Origin: Labedella phragmitis | Lineage (GTDB): Bacteria > Actinomycetota > Actinomycetes > Actinomycetales > Microbacteriaceae | Direction of reading: 5' to 3' | Length of the DNA: 64,000 nucleotides | Assembly (NCBI RefSeq): GCF_004078635.1 | Contig: NZ_RZNB01000002.1 | Location: 186,001 to 250,000 of the forward strand | In this document: positions 10,979-18,096 of the stretch, piece by piece | Numbering within the stretch: the stretch's first letter is position 1 | How the letters are laid out: each line of letters begins with the position of its first letter | Notes under the pieces: generated by a model | Told to the model about the DNA's origin: nothing | The model's input: only the letters and a program-made list of their open reading frames with translations | Databases searched by the model: none | Position numbers and translations under genes: made by a program

Positions 10979-11800
10979 TCAGGCGTTCTTCGGAGCCGTG
11001 AGTTCGGCGTACTCGCCGACGCGCCCCGTGCGGAGGACCCGGTCGAGCAGGAGGTCGAAGTTCTTCGCCATCTCCTGGGCGCTCTCGCCCGGCCAGATGT
11101 GAACGGGCTTCGCCGCCCCCTGCGCCTGCTGCAGCGCGGTGCGCTCGGGAAGCTGCGGGGACAGGACGAGAGGACCGAACATGTCCCGCAGTTCCTTGAT
11201 GCGGAACTGGTGCTCGAGCGACTGGGCGCGAACGCGGTTGACGATGATGCCGAGCGGCTGCAGTCGCGGGGACAATCCGCGACGGATCTCCTCGATGGCA
11301 CGGAGCGCACGGTCGGCCGCCGCGACGGAGAAGAGGCCCGGCTCGGTCACGACGCTCACACGGTCGCTCGCGGCCCAGGCCGTGCGGGTGAGGGCGTTGA
11401 GCGACGGAGCGCAGTCGATGAGCACGAGGTCGTACTCGGACTCGACGTGCGCGAGTGCCTCCTCGAGCTTCCAGATGTCGCGGATCGACGGGTGCGGGCC
11501 GTCGAAGTTGATGGCCGACGGGCTTCCGATCATGACGTCGACGGTGCCCGCGTGGGTCTTGGTCCACCCGGAGGGGGTGATGGCCTGTCGGACCGTCTTC
11601 TCCTTGGGGGAGGCGAGGACATCGGCGACGCTCAAGCGACCGGACAGCGAGATGTCCATCCCCGTGGAGACGTCCGACTGGGGGTCGAGGTCGACGACGA
11701 GCGTGCGGATGCCCTTCGCGAATGCGGCGGAGGCCAGGCCGAGGCTGACCGTCGTCTTGCCGACGCCTCCCTTGAGGCTGCTCACGCTGAGTACATGCAC
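10979..11800 (-). CDS. orphan ParA-family ATPase
   Basis: A 273-residue ParA/Soj-type ATPase. The deviant Walker A ([10 protein letters not shown], residues 8-17) contains the signature lysine; VVDLDPQSD is the A' motif and LVLIDCAPS the Walker B. The GTG at 11800 places the P-loop at the usual distance from the start; the very long frame continuing upstream only mirrors pyc. No parB lies beside it, so it is an orphan ParA rather than the chromosome partition pair; similar orphans in Actinobacteria act in division-site or pole organisation, which is inference here. It is divergent from pyruvate carboxylase with an inverted repeat between them. Confidence 0.88.
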   Translation of the reverse strand: MHVLSVSSLKGGVGKTTVSLGLASAAFAKGIRTLVVDLDPQSDVSTGMDISLSGRLSVADVLASPKEKTVRQAITPSGWTKTHAGTVDVMIGSPSAINFDGPHPSIRDIWKLEEALAHVESEYDLVLIDCAPSLNALTRTAWAASDRVSVVTEPGLFSVAAADRALRAIEEIRRGLSPRLQPLGIIVNRVRAQSLEHQFRIKELRDMFGPLVLSPQLPERTALQQAQGAAKPVHIWPGESAQEMAKNFDLLLDRVLRTGRVGEYAELTAPKNA

Positions 11801-11820
11801 AATCAGATACGTTACCTTTA

Positions 11821-11845
11821 CAACGGTTGAGGAACCTAACCGTTG
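11821..11845. promoter_or_regulatory. inverted repeat between parA and pyc
   Basis: CAACGGTT, nine bases, AACCGTTG: perfect 8-base arms in the 78-base divergent promoter region, 21 bases upstream of the parA start and 34 before the pyc start. The position suits an operator acting on both genes. The binding protein is unknown. Confidence 0.55.
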
Positions 11846-11878
11846 CCTGTGCGCTCCTCTCCTCCCGAAAGGCCCTGC

Positions 11879-14800
11879 ATGTTCACGAAGATCCTGGTAG
11901 CCAACCGCGGGGAGATCGCCATCAGGGCGTTCCGCGCCGCATACGAGCTCGGTGCCCAGACTGTGGCCGTGTTCCCGTATGAGGACCGCAACTCGTTCCA
12001 TCGGCTCAAGGCCGACGAGGCCTACCAGATCGGCGAAGAGGGACACCCGGTCCGCGCCTACCTGTCCGTTGAGGAGATCATCCGCGTCGCGAAGGAGAGC
12101 GGCGCCGACGCGATCTACCCCGGCTACGGCTTCCTCTCGGAGAACCCGGACCTGGCCGAGCAGGCCGCCGCTGCGGGGATCACCTTCATCGGACCGCCGT
12201 CCCACGTCCTCGAGATGGCGGGCAACAAGGTGACCGCGAAGGAGCACGCGATCGCTGCGGGAGTCCCCGTCCTCCGGTCCACGCCGGCTTCCGCCGACGT
12301 CGACGAGCTCATCGCCGGTGCAGAGTCGGTCGGCTTCCCCCTCTTCGCCAAGGCCGTCGCGGGCGGTGGCGGTCGCGGCATGCGCCGTGTCGAGCGGATC
12401 GAGGATCTCGCCGACGCCCTGGCCGCAGCCATGCGCGAGGCCGATAGCGCGTTCGGCGACCCGCGCATGTTCCTGGAGCAGGCCGTCCTGCGTCCGCGCC
12501 ACATCGAGGTGCAGATCCTCGCCGACGCGACGGGCGAGACGGTCCACCTCTTCGAGCGCGACTGCTCGGTGCAGCGACGGAACCAGAAGGTCGTCGAGAT
12601 CGCGCCGGCCCCGAACATCTCCGACGAGCTCCGGAACGCGCTCCACCGCGACGCCGTCGCCTTTGCCCGGTCCATCGGCTACGTGAACGCCGGAACCGTC
12701 GAGTTCCTCGTCGACACCGTCGGTGAGCGGGCAGGCGAACACGTATTCATCGAGATGAACCCGCGCATCCAGGTCGAGCACACCGTCACGGAGGAAGTGA
12801 CGGACGTCGACCTCGTGCAGTCGCAGATGCGCATCGCCGCGGGGGAGTCGCTCGCCGACCTCGAGCTGCACCAGGAGAACATCCACTTGCGCGGCGCCGC
12901 GCTGCAGTGCCGCATCACCACGGAGGACCCGACCCAGGGCTTCCGCCCCGACACGGGGAAGATCTCGACGTACCGGTCTCCGGGCGGCGGCGGCATCCGG
13001 CTCGACGGCGGTACCGTCGCGTCGGGGGCGCAGATCAGCCCCCACTTCGACTCCATGCTCGCGAAGCTCACGTGCCGTGGTCGGGACTTCCCGTCGGCGG
13101 TCAACCGCGCACGCCGCGCCCTCGCCGAGTTCCGCATCCGCGGCGTCTCCACCAACATCCCGTTCCTCCAGGCGGTGCTCGATGACCCGTCGTTCGTCGT
13201 AGGCGACCTGTCGACGTCGTTCATCGAGGAGCGTCCCGAACTGCTCAAGGGGCGGGTCTCGAAGGACCGCGGGACGAAGATCATGTCCTGGCTCGCCGAC
13301 GTGACCGTCAACAAGCCCAATGGGGACCGCCCGGCCGCGGCCGATCCCCGCACCAAGTTGCCGCAGCTCGACCTCTCGGTCGAGGCGCCAGCCGGATCCC
13401 GCCAGCGTGTCCAGGAGCTCGGCCCCGAGGGCTTCGCCGCGGCGCTGCGTGCGCAGACGGCTCTCGCCGTCACCGACACCACCTTCCGCGACGCACACCA
13501 GTCCCTTCTCGCGACACGCGTCCGCACGAAGGAGCTCCTCGCAGCGGCACCGTACCTCGCCCGCATGACGCCGCAGCTGCTCTCGGTCGAGGCGTGGGGC
13601 GGCGCCACGTACGACGTCGCTCTCCGCTTCCTCGGCGAGGACCCGTGGGAGCGACTCGACTCGCTGCGATCGGCGCTGCCGAACGTCGCGATCCAGATGC
13701 TCCTCCGTGGACGCAACACGGTCGGTTACACGCCGTATCCCACGGAGGTGACGTCCGCCTTCATCGACGAGGCGGCGCGCTCCGGCATCGACATCTTCCG
13801 GATCTTCGACGCGCTCAACGACGTCGAACAGATGAGGCCGGCGATCGAGGCCGTACTCGAGACGGGCACAGCCGTCGCCGAGGTCGCCGTCTGCTACACG
13901 GGCGACCTCCTCGACCCGACCGAAGACCTCTATACGCTCGACTACTACCTGCGACTCGCCGAGCAGATCGTCGGAGCCGGCGCCCACATCCTCGCGATCA
14001 AGGACATGGCCGGACTGCTGCGCCCGGCGGCGGCCGCCACCCTCGTGTCGGCTCTCCGCAGCCGGTTCGACCTGCCGGTCCACGTGCACACGCACGACAC
14101 GGCAGGCGGCCAGCTCGCGACCCTCCTCGCCGCGAGCCAGGCCGGCGCCGACGCCGTCGACGTGGCGTCGGCCGCGATGTCGGGGACGACGAGCCAACCG
14201 TCGGAGTCGGCTCTCGTCGCCGCTCTCGCGCACACCGAGCGCGACACGGGACTCTCGCTCGAAGCGGTGAGCGACCTCGAACCCTACTGGGAAGCCGTCC
14301 GTGCGCTCTATCGTCCGTTCGAGTCCGGCCTGCCCGGCCCGACCGGTCGCGTCTACAAGCACGAGATCCCCGGCGGCCAGTTGTCGAACCTGCGGCAGCA
14401 GGCCATCGCGCTCGGCCTCGCCAACGACTTCGAGCTCATTGAGGACATGTACGCGGCCGCGAACAACATCCTCGGCCGTGTGCCGAAGGTGACGCCGTCG
14501 TCCAAGGTCGTCGGAGACCTCGCCCTGCACCTGGCCGCCGTCAAGGCGGACCCCGCCGACTTCGCCGAGAACCCGCAGAAGTACGACATCCCGGACTCGG
14601 TCGTCGGGTTCATGGCCGGCGAGCTCGGTGACCTCCCGGGCGGCTGGCCGGAGCCCTTCCGGTCGAAGGTCCTCGAGGGTCGGCACGTCGACATCTCCGT
14701 CACCCCCGTCGGCGAGGAAGACCTGCAGTCGCTACGCGAACAGGGCTCCGAGCGTCGATCGACCCTCAACCGACTCCTCTTCCCCGCCCCGACCAAGCAG

Positions 14801-15286
14801 TTCCTCGAGACGCGGGATCAGTACGGAGATCTGTCGGTGCTCGACACGGCCGACTACCTCTACGGACTCGAGAGCGGTCGCGAGCATGTCGTCGAGATCA
14901 GCAAGGGCGTCCGGCTGTACCTCGGTCTCGAAGCGATCGGCGAAGCCGACGACAAGGGGATGCGCACCGTCATGACGACGCTCAACGGTCAATTGCGGCC
15001 GTTGTCCGTTCGGGACCGCTCGATCAAGGTCGAGAGCAAGGCCGCGGAGAAGGCCGACAGCTCCCACCCCGGGCACGTCGCGGCGCCGTTCTCCGGTGTC
15101 GTGACGGTCAAGATCGAGGACGGCCAGTCTGTGTCCGCCGGCCAGGCCGTGGCCTCGATCGAGGCGATGAAGATGGAGGCGGCGATCACGTCGCCCGTCG
15201 ACGGCGTCGTGGAGCGCATCGCGATCGGAGCGACGCAGCAGGTGGAGGCCGGCGACCTCATCGTCGTCGTTCGCGCCGAGAGCTGA
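11879..15286 (+). CDS. pyc: pyruvate carboxylase
   Basis: A 1135-residue biotin enzyme that carboxylates pyruvate to oxaloacetate with ATP and bicarbonate, refilling the TCA cycle. Domains in order: biotin carboxylase (about 1-450, beginning KILVANRGEIAIR, with the GGGGRGMR ATP loop and FIEMNPRIQVEHTVTEEV), carboxyltransferase (about 525-800, TDTTFRDAHQSLLATRVRT and the metal-binding region HVHTHDTAG), a linker/tetramerisation region, and the biotin carrier domain with Lys1098 in EAMKMEA. The length is normal for a single-chain enzyme. The ATG at 11879 has GAAAGG upstream; an upstream ATG at 11843 is rejected. Confidence 0.97.
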   Translation: MFTKILVANRGEIAIRAFRAAYELGAQTVAVFPYEDRNSFHRLKADEAYQIGEEGHPVRAYLSVEEIIRVAKESGADAIYPGYGFLSENPDLAEQAAAAGITFIGPPSHVLEMAGNKVTAKEHAIAAGVPVLRSTPASADVDELIAGAESVGFPLFAKAVAGGGGRGMRRVERIEDLADALAAAMREADSAFGDPRMFLEQAVLRPRHIEVQILADATGETVHLFERDCSVQRRNQKVVEIAPAPNISDELRNALHRDAVAFARSIGYVNAGTVEFLVDTVGERAGEHVFIEMNPRIQVEHTVTEEVTDVDLVQSQMRIAAGESLADLELHQENIHLRGAALQCRITTEDPTQGFRPDTGKISTYRSPGGGGIRLDGGTVASGAQISPHFDSMLAKLTCRGRDFPSAVNRARRALAEFRIRGVSTNIPFLQAVLDDPSFVVGDLSTSFIEERPELLKGRVSKDRGTKIMSWLADVTVNKPNGDRPAAADPRTKLPQLDLSVEAPAGSRQRVQELGPEGFAAALRAQTALAVTDTTFRDAHQSLLATRVRTKELLAAAPYLARMTPQLLSVEAWGGATYDVALRFLGEDPWERLDSLRSALPNVAIQMLLRGRNTVGYTPYPTEVTSAFIDEAARSGIDIFRIFDALNDVEQMRPAIEAVLETGTAVAEVAVCYTGDLLDPTEDLYTLDYYLRLAEQIVGAGAHILAIKDMAGLLRPAAAATLVSALRSRFDLPVHVHTHDTAGGQLATLLAASQAGADAVDVASAAMSGTTSQPSESALVAALAHTERDTGLSLEAVSDLEPYWEAVRALYRPFESGLPGPTGRVYKHEIPGGQLSNLRQQAIALGLANDFELIEDMYAAANNILGRVPKVTPSSKVVGDLALHLAAVKADPADFAENPQKYDIPDSVVGFMAGELGDLPGGWPEPFRSKVLEGRHVDISVTPVGEEDLQSLREQGSERRSTLNRLLFPAPTKQFLETRDQYGDLSVLDTADYLYGLESGREHVVEISKGVRLYLGLEAIGEADDKGMRTVMTTLNGQLRPLSVRDRSIKVESKAAEKADSSHPGHVAAPFSGVVTVKIEDGQSVSAGQAVASIEAMKMEAAITSPVDGVVERIAIGATQQVEAGDLIVVVRAES

Positions 15287-15349: not shown

Positions 15350-15389
15350 GGATCGCGCCCGAAAGAGCACATCGAAAGGGGGCACTCCC

Positions 15390-17612
15390 GTGTCCGACAC
15401 ACCTCCGTCCCGTCCCGGCGGCCGACCCTCGTCCGTGAGGGCGAGACGCAGCGCGATCGACCACATCGCCGACCACGACACGCGCGAGTTGCCCGGACTG
15501 CTCGAGGAGTCGACGGTGGACGCCGCGTCCATCCCCCTGTCGACGTTCTCGATCGTGCCCCAGACGGCGCCGATCGGCGTCGACGAGGACCTCGTCGACG
15601 ACGGTGACGTCGTGGCCTCCGAAGTCGCTCCTGACGAAGCCGCGACGGCGACCCTCGACGAGGTGCGCACCCCCGTCACCGAGGCGGGTCGCGAGATGCC
15701 GGTCGTCGTCGCTACCGTCGACCCGACGCCGACGGGGCCCGCGGTCCGCCCGAGTGCGCCGAGCGCGGATCGGACCTCGCTCGTCGCCGGACCCGTGAGC
15801 ACCGAGCCGGTCGACGAGACGCCGGCAGGTGCCGGTTCGGATGTCGACGAACCGACCATTGCGAAGCCGGTGGCGCAGAAGGGTGGTCCGCGCACGCCGA
15901 CCGCCTCGACGCCCGCCGCGAGGAAGACTCGCGCCTCCTCGTCGACGTCATCGCGGAAGCCGGCATCGCAGAAGCCGGCCACGAAGACCCCGGAGTCGCA
16001 GAGGCCCGCTCCGCAGGGGTCGGCATCCGCCGCACCGTCACAGAAGCCGACACCTTCCACAGGGAAGGAGCGCGCGTCGGCCACGAGCGGCTCGCGCACG
16101 GCGGCGAGCACGAACACGACTGCCGTCGCGTCGAGCGGAGCCGAGCAGGCCCCGACGGGTTCGACCGCCCGTGAGAAGAACTCCGCCCGGACGACGACGC
16201 CGCGGAAGAAGCCGGCAGCCAAGCGCACGCCGCCGGTTACACGACCGGGGACTGCGGCGAAGCCGAAGAGCGAAACCGGTGCCGTGCCGACCATCGACGC
16301 CGAGCCGCCCGTAGCGATCGGCGGAGCATCCGGCGAGGACACACTCACCGGGGGCGCACCGCGTCCCGACGTCCCCGAGGGTGCGGCCGCCGAGCCGCGC
16401 TTGACGCTCGCCGATCCTGCGGTCGTCGTCGATCTCCCGCCCGCAGAACAGCAGGAGGTCCCGGAGGAGGAACTCGCCGTCGCGATCGAGGAGGCGCCCG
16501 TGACTCCTGAGCGCCTCGAGCCCCGCACGAGTTCCGTCCCCGTCATCGCCGAGCCGGTGCCGGCTGCCGAACGGGACGAGTCGATCGAGGAGCCTCAGGG
16601 TGCCCCCGCCTTCACCGGGATGAGCGTCGCGCGGGCCCTCGCCGGTGCTCCCGAATCGTCGTCGATGCTGACGGCCGAGCGCCTGCTCGACGACCGACGC
16701 GACACACGGCGCGTCCCTGAAGGGTTCTGGCAGAAGCTGCTCTACGACGTCTCCGGGCATCGTATCCGCGCGAAGGACTCCCGCGCGGCCCGCGAACGGA
16801 ACGCGCTCACCGCACGCATCGCGAAACCGCTGAGCGGCAGCGCACGATTCGTCCCCGTCCTCACCCGCAAGGGCGGCGTCGGCAAGACGACCGTGACGAC
16901 GCTCCTCGGGATGGCTCTCGCCGACGCCCGGGACGACCGCGTCATCGCGATCGACGCCAATCCGGATCGAGGGACGCTCGCGGAACGGATCGCGCGGCGC
17001 AACGACCACACCGTCCGCGACCTGGTGCGCACGGCTTCAGCGGTCACCGGGTACACGGAATTCTCGAACCTCGTCTCACGCGATGCGACGCGCCTCGACG
17101 TGCTCGCCTCGGACACCGACCCCCACCTGTCGCAGGCGTTCGACGAGGACGACTACGACATCGTCGCCCGCCTGGCGTCGCAGTACTACTCGATCGTGTT
17201 GACCGACTGCGGCACGGGGATCGTGCACTCCGTGATGGGAGCGACTCTCCGCCATGCCGACTCGCTCGTGATCGTCTCGGGCACGAGCGTCGACGAAGCG
17301 CGCTCCGCAGCGGAGACGGTCTCGTGGCTCGAGGCCAACGGCTACCCCGAGCTCGCCGCGAGCGCGGTCGTCGTCATCAATTCCACGGCGCCGGGCACAC
17401 CGGCCGTGCGTCTCGACGAGATCGAGAAGCACTTCGAATCACGAGTGAGGAGCATCGTGCGCGTCCCGTTCGATCCCCAATTGGCGACCGGTGCGGCGAT
17501 CTCCTTCGCCGACCTGCGTCCCGACACCCGGAAGGCGGCGCGAGAGCTGTCCGCCCTCGTCGTCGAGGGTCTGCCGGCGCGGCGATCGACCCGGGAGCCG
17601 GCCGATGGCTGA
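15390..17612 (+). CDS. MinD/ParA-like ATPase with long disordered N-terminal region
   Basis: A 740-residue protein. About the first 440 residues are low complexity, rich in Pro, Ala, Thr, Ser and Glu, with lysine-rich stretches ([21 protein letters not shown]), so probably disordered. The C-terminal 260 residues form a P-loop ATPase: [20 protein letters not shown] (about 487-506), AIDANPDRG, and [13 protein letters not shown]. The ATPase resembles the MinD-like domain of actinobacterial proteins related to EspI of ESX secretion loci and other proline-rich MinD-like proteins, but no ESX gene is near. GTG start with AAAGGGGG. Its last 8 bases overlap the start of def. Function unknown; a role in cell-pole or envelope organisation would be inference. 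Confidence 0.8.
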
Positions 17613-18096
17613 GCGCGAGATCCGGATCTTCGGCGACCCGATCCTCAAGACGGCGTGCGAGCCCATCGGCGAGATCACCGACAAGGTGAGGGGCCTCGTC
17701 GAGGACCTGCTCGACTCCGTCGCTCTCCCCGGGCGGGCCGGCGTCGCCGCCAACCAGATCGGCGTCGGCCTGCGTGCCTTCAGCTACAACGTCGACGGCC
17801 AGATCGGCTACGTCATCAACCCGGTGCTCGTCGAGACGCGTGGGGAGCCCGAGCCGGTCGACGAGGGCTGCCTCTCCGTCCCGGGCCTCTGGTACCCCAC
17901 GGTGCGCTATCCCTTCGCGCGCGTCACGGGTGTCGATCTCGAGGGGAACGCGATCGAGGTCTCCGGCACCGGGGTACTCGCGCAGGCGCTCCAGCACGAG
18001 ACGGACCACCTCGACGGCACCCTCTACCTCGACCGCCTCGACAAGGAGAATCGTCGAGCCGCCATGAAAGAGGTTCGAGAGTCGTCCTGGTTCTGA
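17605..18096 (+). CDS. def: peptide deformylase
   Basis: A 163-residue metalloenzyme that removes the formyl group from nascent proteins. All three signatures are visible: motif 1 GVAANQIG (46-53), motif 2 EGCLSVPG with metal ligand Cys89, and motif 3 QHETDHLDG with His131, catalytic Glu132 and His135. The ATG at 17605 overlaps the upstream ATPase gene (ATGGCTGA), so translation is probably coupled. It converges on the acyl-CoA synthetase gene. Confidence 0.95.

What the first reader, a model, noticed from the sequence alone, without database searches (positions are those of the whole stretch)
15390..17612. 740-residue MinD-like ATPase with a 440-residue disordered front
The C-terminal ATPase resembles those of EspI-like proteins but no ESX genes are nearby; it is translationally coupled to def and follows pyc. 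The long Lys/Pro/Ala/Thr-rich region may bind polar scaffold, membrane or nucleic acid. The function is undescribed as far as I can judge.
Basis: partly seen in the sequence, partly recalled or inferred. Interest (0 to 1): 0.5.

Follow-up and report, generated by a model that had tools for sequence, protein, structure and literature searches.

The report
ESX-free MinD-like ATPase, conserved pyc-def gene
This gene makes a well-conserved, probably ATP-driven switch protein with a long, probably floppy front; it sits between two housekeeping genes in many members of one bacterial family, occurs without the secretion system that its cousin EspI belongs to, and what it controls is still unknown.

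Summary
The ORF is real: 15390-17612 (+), 740 aa, overlapping def by 8 nt and following pyc. Residues 486-727 form a predicted ParA/MinD-type ATPase with an intact KGGVGKTT loop, after a conserved helical linker (421-485). The ~420-residue front is mostly low-complexity but carries a short acidic-hydrophobic motif (342-377) shared with other genera. Its Lys-rich block (about 155-300) was seen in this genus only (4 of 4 rows; 0 of 93 others combine high Lys with high net charge).

The nearest named genus is Labedella (Microbacteriaceae). At E 1e-60, 196 of 299 family genomes match (61 of 85 genera; four matches may be paralogues), including 23 listed genomes of at most 1.5 Mb. In 14 of 17 examined gene-negative genomes with pyc, def directly follows pyc: a removable cassette.

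It is not EspI proper: no EccB or EccD in the genome, no EspI N-terminal domain, no link between presence and EccC, and a separate pyc-linked clade (100/99). EspI looks like one ESX-adapted branch of a wider actinobacterial family.

Most likely it is an orphan ParA/MinD positioning or regulatory switch whose front recruits an unknown partner. Activity, location and partner are inferred, not shown. It is a new subfamily of a known kind.

The parts
15390..17612 (+). CDS, 740 aa: low-complexity front + helical linker + ParA/MinD-type ATPase
15375..15382 (+). AAAGGGGG, likely ribosome-binding site
   Evidence: sequence, (inference)
15390..15680 (+). N-terminal tip, residues 1-97, conserved within the genus (basic first 22 residues, then acidic)
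15852..16289 (+). Lys/Pro/Ala/Thr-rich low-complexity block, residues ~155-300, seen in this genus only
16413..16520 (+). conserved acidic-hydrophobic short motif, residues 342-377
   Evidence: profile built without this genus scores 35.7 bits here
16650..16844 (+). helical linker, residues 421-485 ([18 protein letters not shown]), conserved
16845..17570 (+). ATPase domain, residues 486-727
   Evidence: Pfam CbiA/AAA_31; predicted fold
16869..16892 (+). deviant Walker A KGGVGKTT, residues 494-501
16944..16967 (+). Walker A' region IAIDANPD, residues 519-526
   Evidence: the label is recalled
17199..17219 (+). Walker B region LTDCGTG, residues 604-610
   Evidence: the label is recalled
17605..18096 (+). 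def, peptide deformylase, 8-nt overlap with the ATPase gene
11843..15286 (+). pyc, pyruvate carboxylase, upstream neighbour
10979..11821 (-). ParA-like gene, divergent from pyc (start approximate)

Best explanation
It is a free-standing (orphan) ParA/MinD-type ATPase of a subfamily that sits between pyc and def in Microbacteriaceae, related to but distinct from EspI. Shown here by sequence: the gene, its conserved order, the intact ATP-binding loops, the conserved linker and short acidic motif, the rapid change of the rest of the front, and its occurrence independent of ESX/T7SS genes; the ParA/MinD fold is predicted. Inferred: it cycles between an ATP-bound dimer and a released monomer. The front works as a flexible arm whose short motif holds a partner or cargo, while the ATPase core and linker bind a surface and release it on hydrolysis. 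The result is spatial positioning or on/off control of something cytoplasmic or at the envelope. In this genus the added Lys-rich block may give extra electrostatic attachment to nucleoid or anionic lipid. Placement between pyc and def probably gives steady housekeeping expression rather than a shared pathway.
For: Fold and loops: best PDB matches are ParA-family 3ea0 (Z 26.1, 234 residues, rmsd 2.7), MinD, FleN and Soj; 243 of 410 modelled residues have pLDDT 90 or more, mostly in the ATPase. ATPase and linker are strongly conserved over 102 rows, some near-duplicates, with many columns at 90% or more around the nucleotide site. Within the genus the front is 43-61% identical over aligned positions against 80-91% for linker plus ATPase. 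Gene order: def downstream in 80 of 80 named loci, 78 of them within 250 nt and two at 1.4-1.5 kb; pyc upstream in 78 of 80, the other two contigs starting too close. Present in 23 listed genomes of at most 1.5 Mb, 19 of them at least 90% complete, which argues for a useful core function. The acidic motif is found by a profile in 79 of 105 fronts against 1 of 105 shuffled. Independence from T7SS: EccC-like matches in 16 of 23 carriers and 10 of 13 non-carriers, Fisher p 0.72. Orphan A/D ATPases with unknown partners, and charged disordered partner peptides, are an accepted picture (PMC10241942, passages seen).
Against: No partner, cargo, location or ATPase activity was tested. The motif is missed by the profile in 26 of 105 fronts (among them the Microbacterium, Cryobacterium and Schumannella rows printed), and 56 sequences among the hits were the profile's own seeds; independent are the 5 rows of this genus and some others. 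103 of 299 family genomes have no match at E 1e-60, so the function is dispensable. One orthologue (G035) has lost the Walker A lysine (KGGVGQTT) yet keeps the gene order. No conserved C-terminal extension that could be a MinD-type membrane helix is seen in the alignments.
Confidence: 0.55

Rival explanations
1. It is an EspI working with a type VII secretion system: an ATP-sensing brake on the genome's EccC/WXG100 locus, only displaced from it.
For: Shared architecture (Pro/Ala-rich front, W..LLY linker, KGGVGK ATPase). The genome has one EccC-like frame (1496 aa, 347 bits, below the 509-bit cut-off) and three WXG100-like matches, one below cut-off, at C1:833-844 kb. EspI lowers ESX-1 secretion at low ATP (a 2014 paper as cited in PMC11302016; passages seen).
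Against: No EccB or EccD match. No EspI N-terminal domain NF047907 here, while the ESX-linked L230 scores 49.9 bits; but L232 and L233, also ESX-linked, lack it too, so it marks ESX-1 EspI rather than every ESX-linked copy. Carrier G016 has only one, FtsK-like, EccC match. No association with EccC (p 0.72). Holding pyc-linked and ESX-linked copies together as one clade is rejected (AU p 3e-5; group named after an earlier quick tree, and two long rows were kept).
Confidence: 0.1
2. It is a regulator tied to its operon: it senses ATP or interacts with pyruvate carboxylase or deformylase.
For: pyc-X-def order held across the loci examined, and pyc-X in one genome of another family (G040, L123).
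Against: 14 of 17 gene-negative genomes keep pyc and def adjacent without it. Relatives of the ATPase elsewhere sit beside unrelated genes (cytochrome c maturation, his genes, ESX).
Confidence: 0.1
3. It is a positioning ATPase for a known surface machine: flagella (FlhG-like) or Tad pili (TadZ-like).
For: FleN/FlhG and the ParA-family 3ea0 are among the best fold matches.
Against: No flagellin in the 4 genomes of the genus; flagellin over cut-off in 8 of 23 carriers and 2 of 13 non-carriers. 3 of 23 carriers lack TadE, which 54 of 59 genomes have, so that test is weak.
Confidence: 0.05
4. In this genus the front is a nucleoid-binding tail (histone-H1-like Lys/Pro/Ala repeats), making it a DNA-bound scaffold ATPase.
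For: An 80-residue window of net charge +13 to +18 in all 4 genus rows; a 15-nt repeat encoding SKPAA-like units in G001. A basic disordered N-terminal region of mycobacterial FtsK modulates interactions and binds anionic lipid (PMC13277299, abstract seen). The likeness to histone H1 tails is recalled.
Against: None of 93 rows outside the genus has the same block: three reach net +6 without Lys richness, one (L040) reaches 8 Lys at net +2. The front is net negative overall even here. Slippage of a short repeat needs no function.
Confidence: 0.15

Closest known systems
EspI (Rv3876; gene number recalled) of mycobacterial ESX-1
   Same: Low-complexity front, W..LLY linker, MinD-type KGGVGK ATPase with a DANPD/DADPD motif, judged on ESX-linked copies such as L230
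   Different: No EccB/EccD in the genome, no NF047907 N-terminal domain, separate clade, pyc-def context
ccs/res-linked EspI-like ATPase in family f22 (L229, L235; recalled as the Rv0530 type, a name that comes from no call)
   Same: Not ESX-linked in the stretch read; 48-49% identity to the nearest of the family queries
   Different: Sits near CcsA/ResB (L229) or ResB and a CcdA-like gene (L235); only 141 and 74 residues before the KGG loop, without the acidic motif by eye
MinD / FlhG-FleN / Soj ParA / ParA-family 3ea0
   Same: Fold and nucleotide loops
   Different: About 15-22% identity; far below NCBIfam cut-offs (36.6 of 212.9 bits for bacterial MinD, 39.9 of 180 for ParA partition); this front and linker were not matched in the structures found

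Membership tests
EspI (ESX-1) | encoded with ESX core genes (eccB, eccD) | tested here: not met
   No EccB or EccD match in the genome
EspI (ESX-1) | N-terminal domain NF047907 | tested here: not met
   No hit at E 0.01 in this protein or in 10 orthologue frames. Positive control L230: 49.9 bits; but ESX-linked L232 and L233 lack it too, and L238 was scanned without its N-terminus
EspI (ESX-1) | groups with ESX-linked copies in a tree | tested here: not met
   pyc-linked clade 100/99; pyc+ESX as one clade rejected, AU p 3e-5, group named after an earlier quick tree; ESX-linked L130 and L231 were not in the tree
EspI (ESX-1) | controls ESX secretion by ATP level | not testable with these tools
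   -
ParA/MinD (A/D) ATPases | deviant Walker A xKGGxxK[T/S] | tested here: met
   KGGVGKTT at residues 494-501; pattern as given in PMC10241942 (passage)
ParA/MinD (A/D) ATPases | ParA/MinD fold | tested here: met
   Predicted model: Z 26.1 to 3ea0, 24-25 to MinD, FleN and Soj
ParA/MinD (A/D) ATPases | ATP-sandwich dimer, matrix binding, partner stimulation | not testable with these tools
   -
MinD proper (TIGR01968) | score over curated cut-off | tested here: not met
   36.6 bits against 212.9
ParA partition ATPase (NF041546) | score over curated cut-off | tested here: not met
   39.9 bits against 180
FlhG (flagellar) | occurs with flagella | tested here: not met
   No flagellin in the 4 genomes of the genus; 8 of 23 carriers have it

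The most novel reading that the evidence does not exclude
A broad actinobacterial class of ESX-independent ParA/MinD ATPases, not described in the held library as far as my searches show, in which a partner-like disordered arm with its own binding motif is fused in cis to the ATPase, so that one polypeptide is both motor and cargo adaptor. EspI would then be one branch recruited (perhaps more than once) to type VII secretion, and Labedella would have added a histone-like tail that changes the surface it binds.
Probability: 0.22. Interest if true: 0.65.

Novelty: new member of a known kind. Interest (0 to 1): 0.4.

Why it matters
In the papers seen here EspI appears only as an ESX-1 accessory protein. 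The wider family shows a similar architecture in a non-ESX, housekeeping setting across much of a bacterial family, kept even in small genomes. That suggests the ancestral job may be something other than secretion. The natural presence/absence cassette between pyc and def gives a convenient genetic test of what an orphan ParA/MinD ATPase does in these actinobacteria.

Tried and rejected
A displaced EspI was considered and rejected on EccB/EccD absence, NF047907 absence, EccC co-occurrence and the tree. The idea that residues 40-80 and 342-377 are a duplicated motif was tested with a profile and not supported: one copy was found. The idea of a basic N-terminal tip across genera was tested: net positive in only 36 of 97 rows, with start codons guessed by a script, so not a family rule. 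FlhG and TadZ co-occurrence gave nothing. Antisense ORFs of 113-604 aa over the gene were taken for spurious frames of GC-rich DNA; they were not tested one by one. The fold search says little about parts outside residues 153-402 of the model. Full-length modelling was uninformative. Eight paper searches found no description; I saw their listings only, and the library lacks most subscription journals. The 2014 EspI paper is not held; it was seen only as cited in PMC11302016. Four of the 196 matches (G133, G239, G281, G307; E 1e-67 to 1e-70) score far below the rest and may be paralogues; without them the count is 192 genomes and probably 59 genera. Gene order was checked only in the loci, not in all 196.

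Full report
What is there. The window lies in a 3.52-Mb genome (18 contigs) at C2:186001-250000. The nearest named locus is Labedella endophytica (82% over the ATPase part), so it is a member of the Microbacteriaceae. The ORF 15390-17612 (+) codes for 740 residues. It follows pyc (11843-15286) and overlaps def (17605-18096; PF01327) by 8 nt. A ParA-like gene runs the other way just before pyc, and further up lie FHA and MerR genes.

Anatomy. Pfam finds the general CbiA/AAA_31 nucleotide-binding domain over cut-off, and NCBIfam gives only hits far below cut-off: ParA partition 39.9 of 180 bits, bacterial MinD 36.6 of 212.9. AlphaFold2 on 54 aligned relatives, residues 331-740, gave mean pLDDT 81.7, with the ATPase mostly above 90, a helical linker from about residue 421, and residues 331-417 low. 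The best solved structures are ParA-family 3ea0, MinD, FleN/FlhG and Soj. The nucleotide loops are intact: KGGVGKTT 494-501, IAIDANPD 519-526, LTDCGTG 604-610. Over 102 rows (some near-duplicates) the linker and ATPase are strongly conserved around these loops.

The front. Within the genus the front is 43-61% identical over aligned positions while linker plus ATPase is 80-91%. Its first ~97 residues are conserved within the genus. A short acidic-hydrophobic motif at 342-377 is shared with other genera: a profile built from 56 sequences outside the genus scores 35.7 bits here and hits 79 of 105 fronts against 1 of 105 shuffled ones; the seeds are among the hits, and 26 fronts are missed. A stricter regular expression hits 59 of 105, against 0.125 on average for shuffled fronts. 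The Lys-rich block was seen in this genus only: all 4 rows have 8 or more Lys and an 80-residue window of net +13 to +18. Of the 93 others, one (L040) reaches 8 Lys but with net charge +2, and three reach net charge +6 without the Lys. In G001 it holds a 15-nt repeat encoding SKPAA-like units. Past its first 22 residues the front is net positive in only 3 of 97 rows, and net negative overall in this genus too (starts guessed). So I read the front as an arm with small conserved patches and a fast-changing spacer. The lack of structure itself was not proven: the charge-hydropathy score is on the disordered side only for 150-300 and slightly on the ordered side for the whole front, and the full-length model was poor everywhere.

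Distribution and gene order. In 299 family genomes a match at E 1e-60 is found in 196, in 61 of 85 genera. Four of these (G133, G239, G281, G307) score only 1e-67 to 1e-70 and may be paralogues. Listed open frames run from 336 to 1757 aa. Carriers include 23 listed genomes of 1.5 Mb or less, 19 of them at least 90% complete. In 80 named loci def is found downstream in 80: 8 overlap, 69 have gaps of 0-100 nt, 1 of 101-250 nt, and 2 of 1.4-1.5 kb. pyc lies upstream in 78; the two others are cut by the contig end. The ParA-like gene (over 300 bits) is in 75 of 80. Of 20 gene-negative genomes examined (of 103), 17 have pyc, and in 14 of these def follows pyc with a gap of -4 to 182 nt. A pyc tree of 39 rows needs 8 gains or losses for absence (7-10 in bootstraps; well-supported branches force only 2), against 12.9 for shuffled labels. 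A genome of another family (G040) also has parA/pyc/this gene, without def in the stretch read, which favours old presence with repeated loss. Overlap with def is thus the exception, so translational coupling is not the conserved feature.

Relation to EspI and type VII secretion. The own genome has no EccB and no EccD match. It has one EccC-like frame (347 bits, cut-off 509) and three WXG100-like matches, one below cut-off, at C1:833-844 kb, with a fourth elsewhere, and no homologue of this ATPase beside them. Among 36 family genomes EccB is in 2 of 23 carriers and 3 of 13 non-carriers. EccC-like matches (E below 1e-80) are in 16 of 23 carriers and 10 of 13 non-carriers, p 0.72. The EspI N-terminal domain NF047907 is absent here and in 10 orthologue frames. 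It is present in ESX-linked L230 (49.9 bits) but not in ESX-linked L232 and L233, so it separates this protein from ESX-1 EspI, not from every ESX-linked copy. In the wider class 121 of 246 genomes have a homologue at E 1e-25 or better. Some of the copies I looked at sit near EccC, EccB, EccA or WXG100 genes (L130, L230-L234, L238, L243), others near cytochrome c maturation or other genes. The 23 pyc-linked copies in the tree form one clade (100/99). The 6 ESX-linked copies in it fall in several places (at least 3 changes forced), and a clade of pyc-linked plus ESX-linked copies is rejected (AU p 3e-5; group named after an earlier quick tree). EspI is therefore best read as one ESX-adapted form of a larger family, and this protein as another, ESX-free form. 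Rooting is by midpoint, so the direction of change is not proven.

How it most likely works. ParA/MinD ATPases dimerise on ATP, bind nucleoid or membrane, and are released by a partner that links them to cargo; many are orphans whose partner is unknown, and partner contact often uses a charged disordered N-terminus (PMC10241942, passages). I infer the same cycle here, with the arm and its 342-377 motif as the cargo or partner link and the conserved linker plus ATPase as the switch. In EspI the disordered regions are also Pro-rich and conserved in composition rather than sequence, and the protein lowers ESX-1 secretion at low ATP (PMC11302016, passages), so an ATP-sensing regulatory role is the main alternative. 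A basic disordered N-terminal region of mycobacterial FtsK changes its confinement and binds anionic lipids (PMC13277299, abstract), which shows how the genus-specific Lys block could matter. Flagella and Tad pili do not track the gene. None of ATP hydrolysis, dimerisation, location, partner or phenotype was tested.

Verdict. This is a conserved, ESX-free subfamily of a known kind of ATPase, of moderate interest because natural loss between two housekeeping genes makes its role testable.

Noticed in passing
L142 / L193 (G035): Orthologue with KGGVGQTT: the Walker A lysine is Gln, yet gene order pyc-X-def is kept; possibly an inactive or ATP-independent form.
   Followed up: partly
L239:8534-10825 and L124:7467-10256: EspI-like ATPase in one frame behind a front that looks multi-membrane-spanning; the L239 front holds HELGHA (metalloprotease-like by eye; no Pfam hit for the front).
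   Followed up: partly
L229, L235: EspI-like ATPase near cytochrome c maturation genes (CcsA and ResB; ResB and CcdA-like).
   Followed up: partly
G000:C1:833000-844200: T7SS-like locus: EccC-like 1496-aa frame and three WXG100-like matches (one below cut-off) in a genome without EccB or EccD matches.
   Followed up: no
L006:800-1140 (G001): 15-nt repeat (15 copies reported in register) encoding SKPAA-like units in the front of the orthologue.
   Followed up: no
L132, L133, L134, L135: Distant homologues (about 30%) share neighbours with each other; in L132 one of these is a TraG-type conjugation protein, so they may lie in conjugative elements.
   Followed up: partly
window 11750-11900: The stretch upstream of the likely parA start, into the 5' end of pyc, goes on aligning in tblastn between relatives; it may be a conserved shared promoter or a mis-set start.
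   Followed up: no
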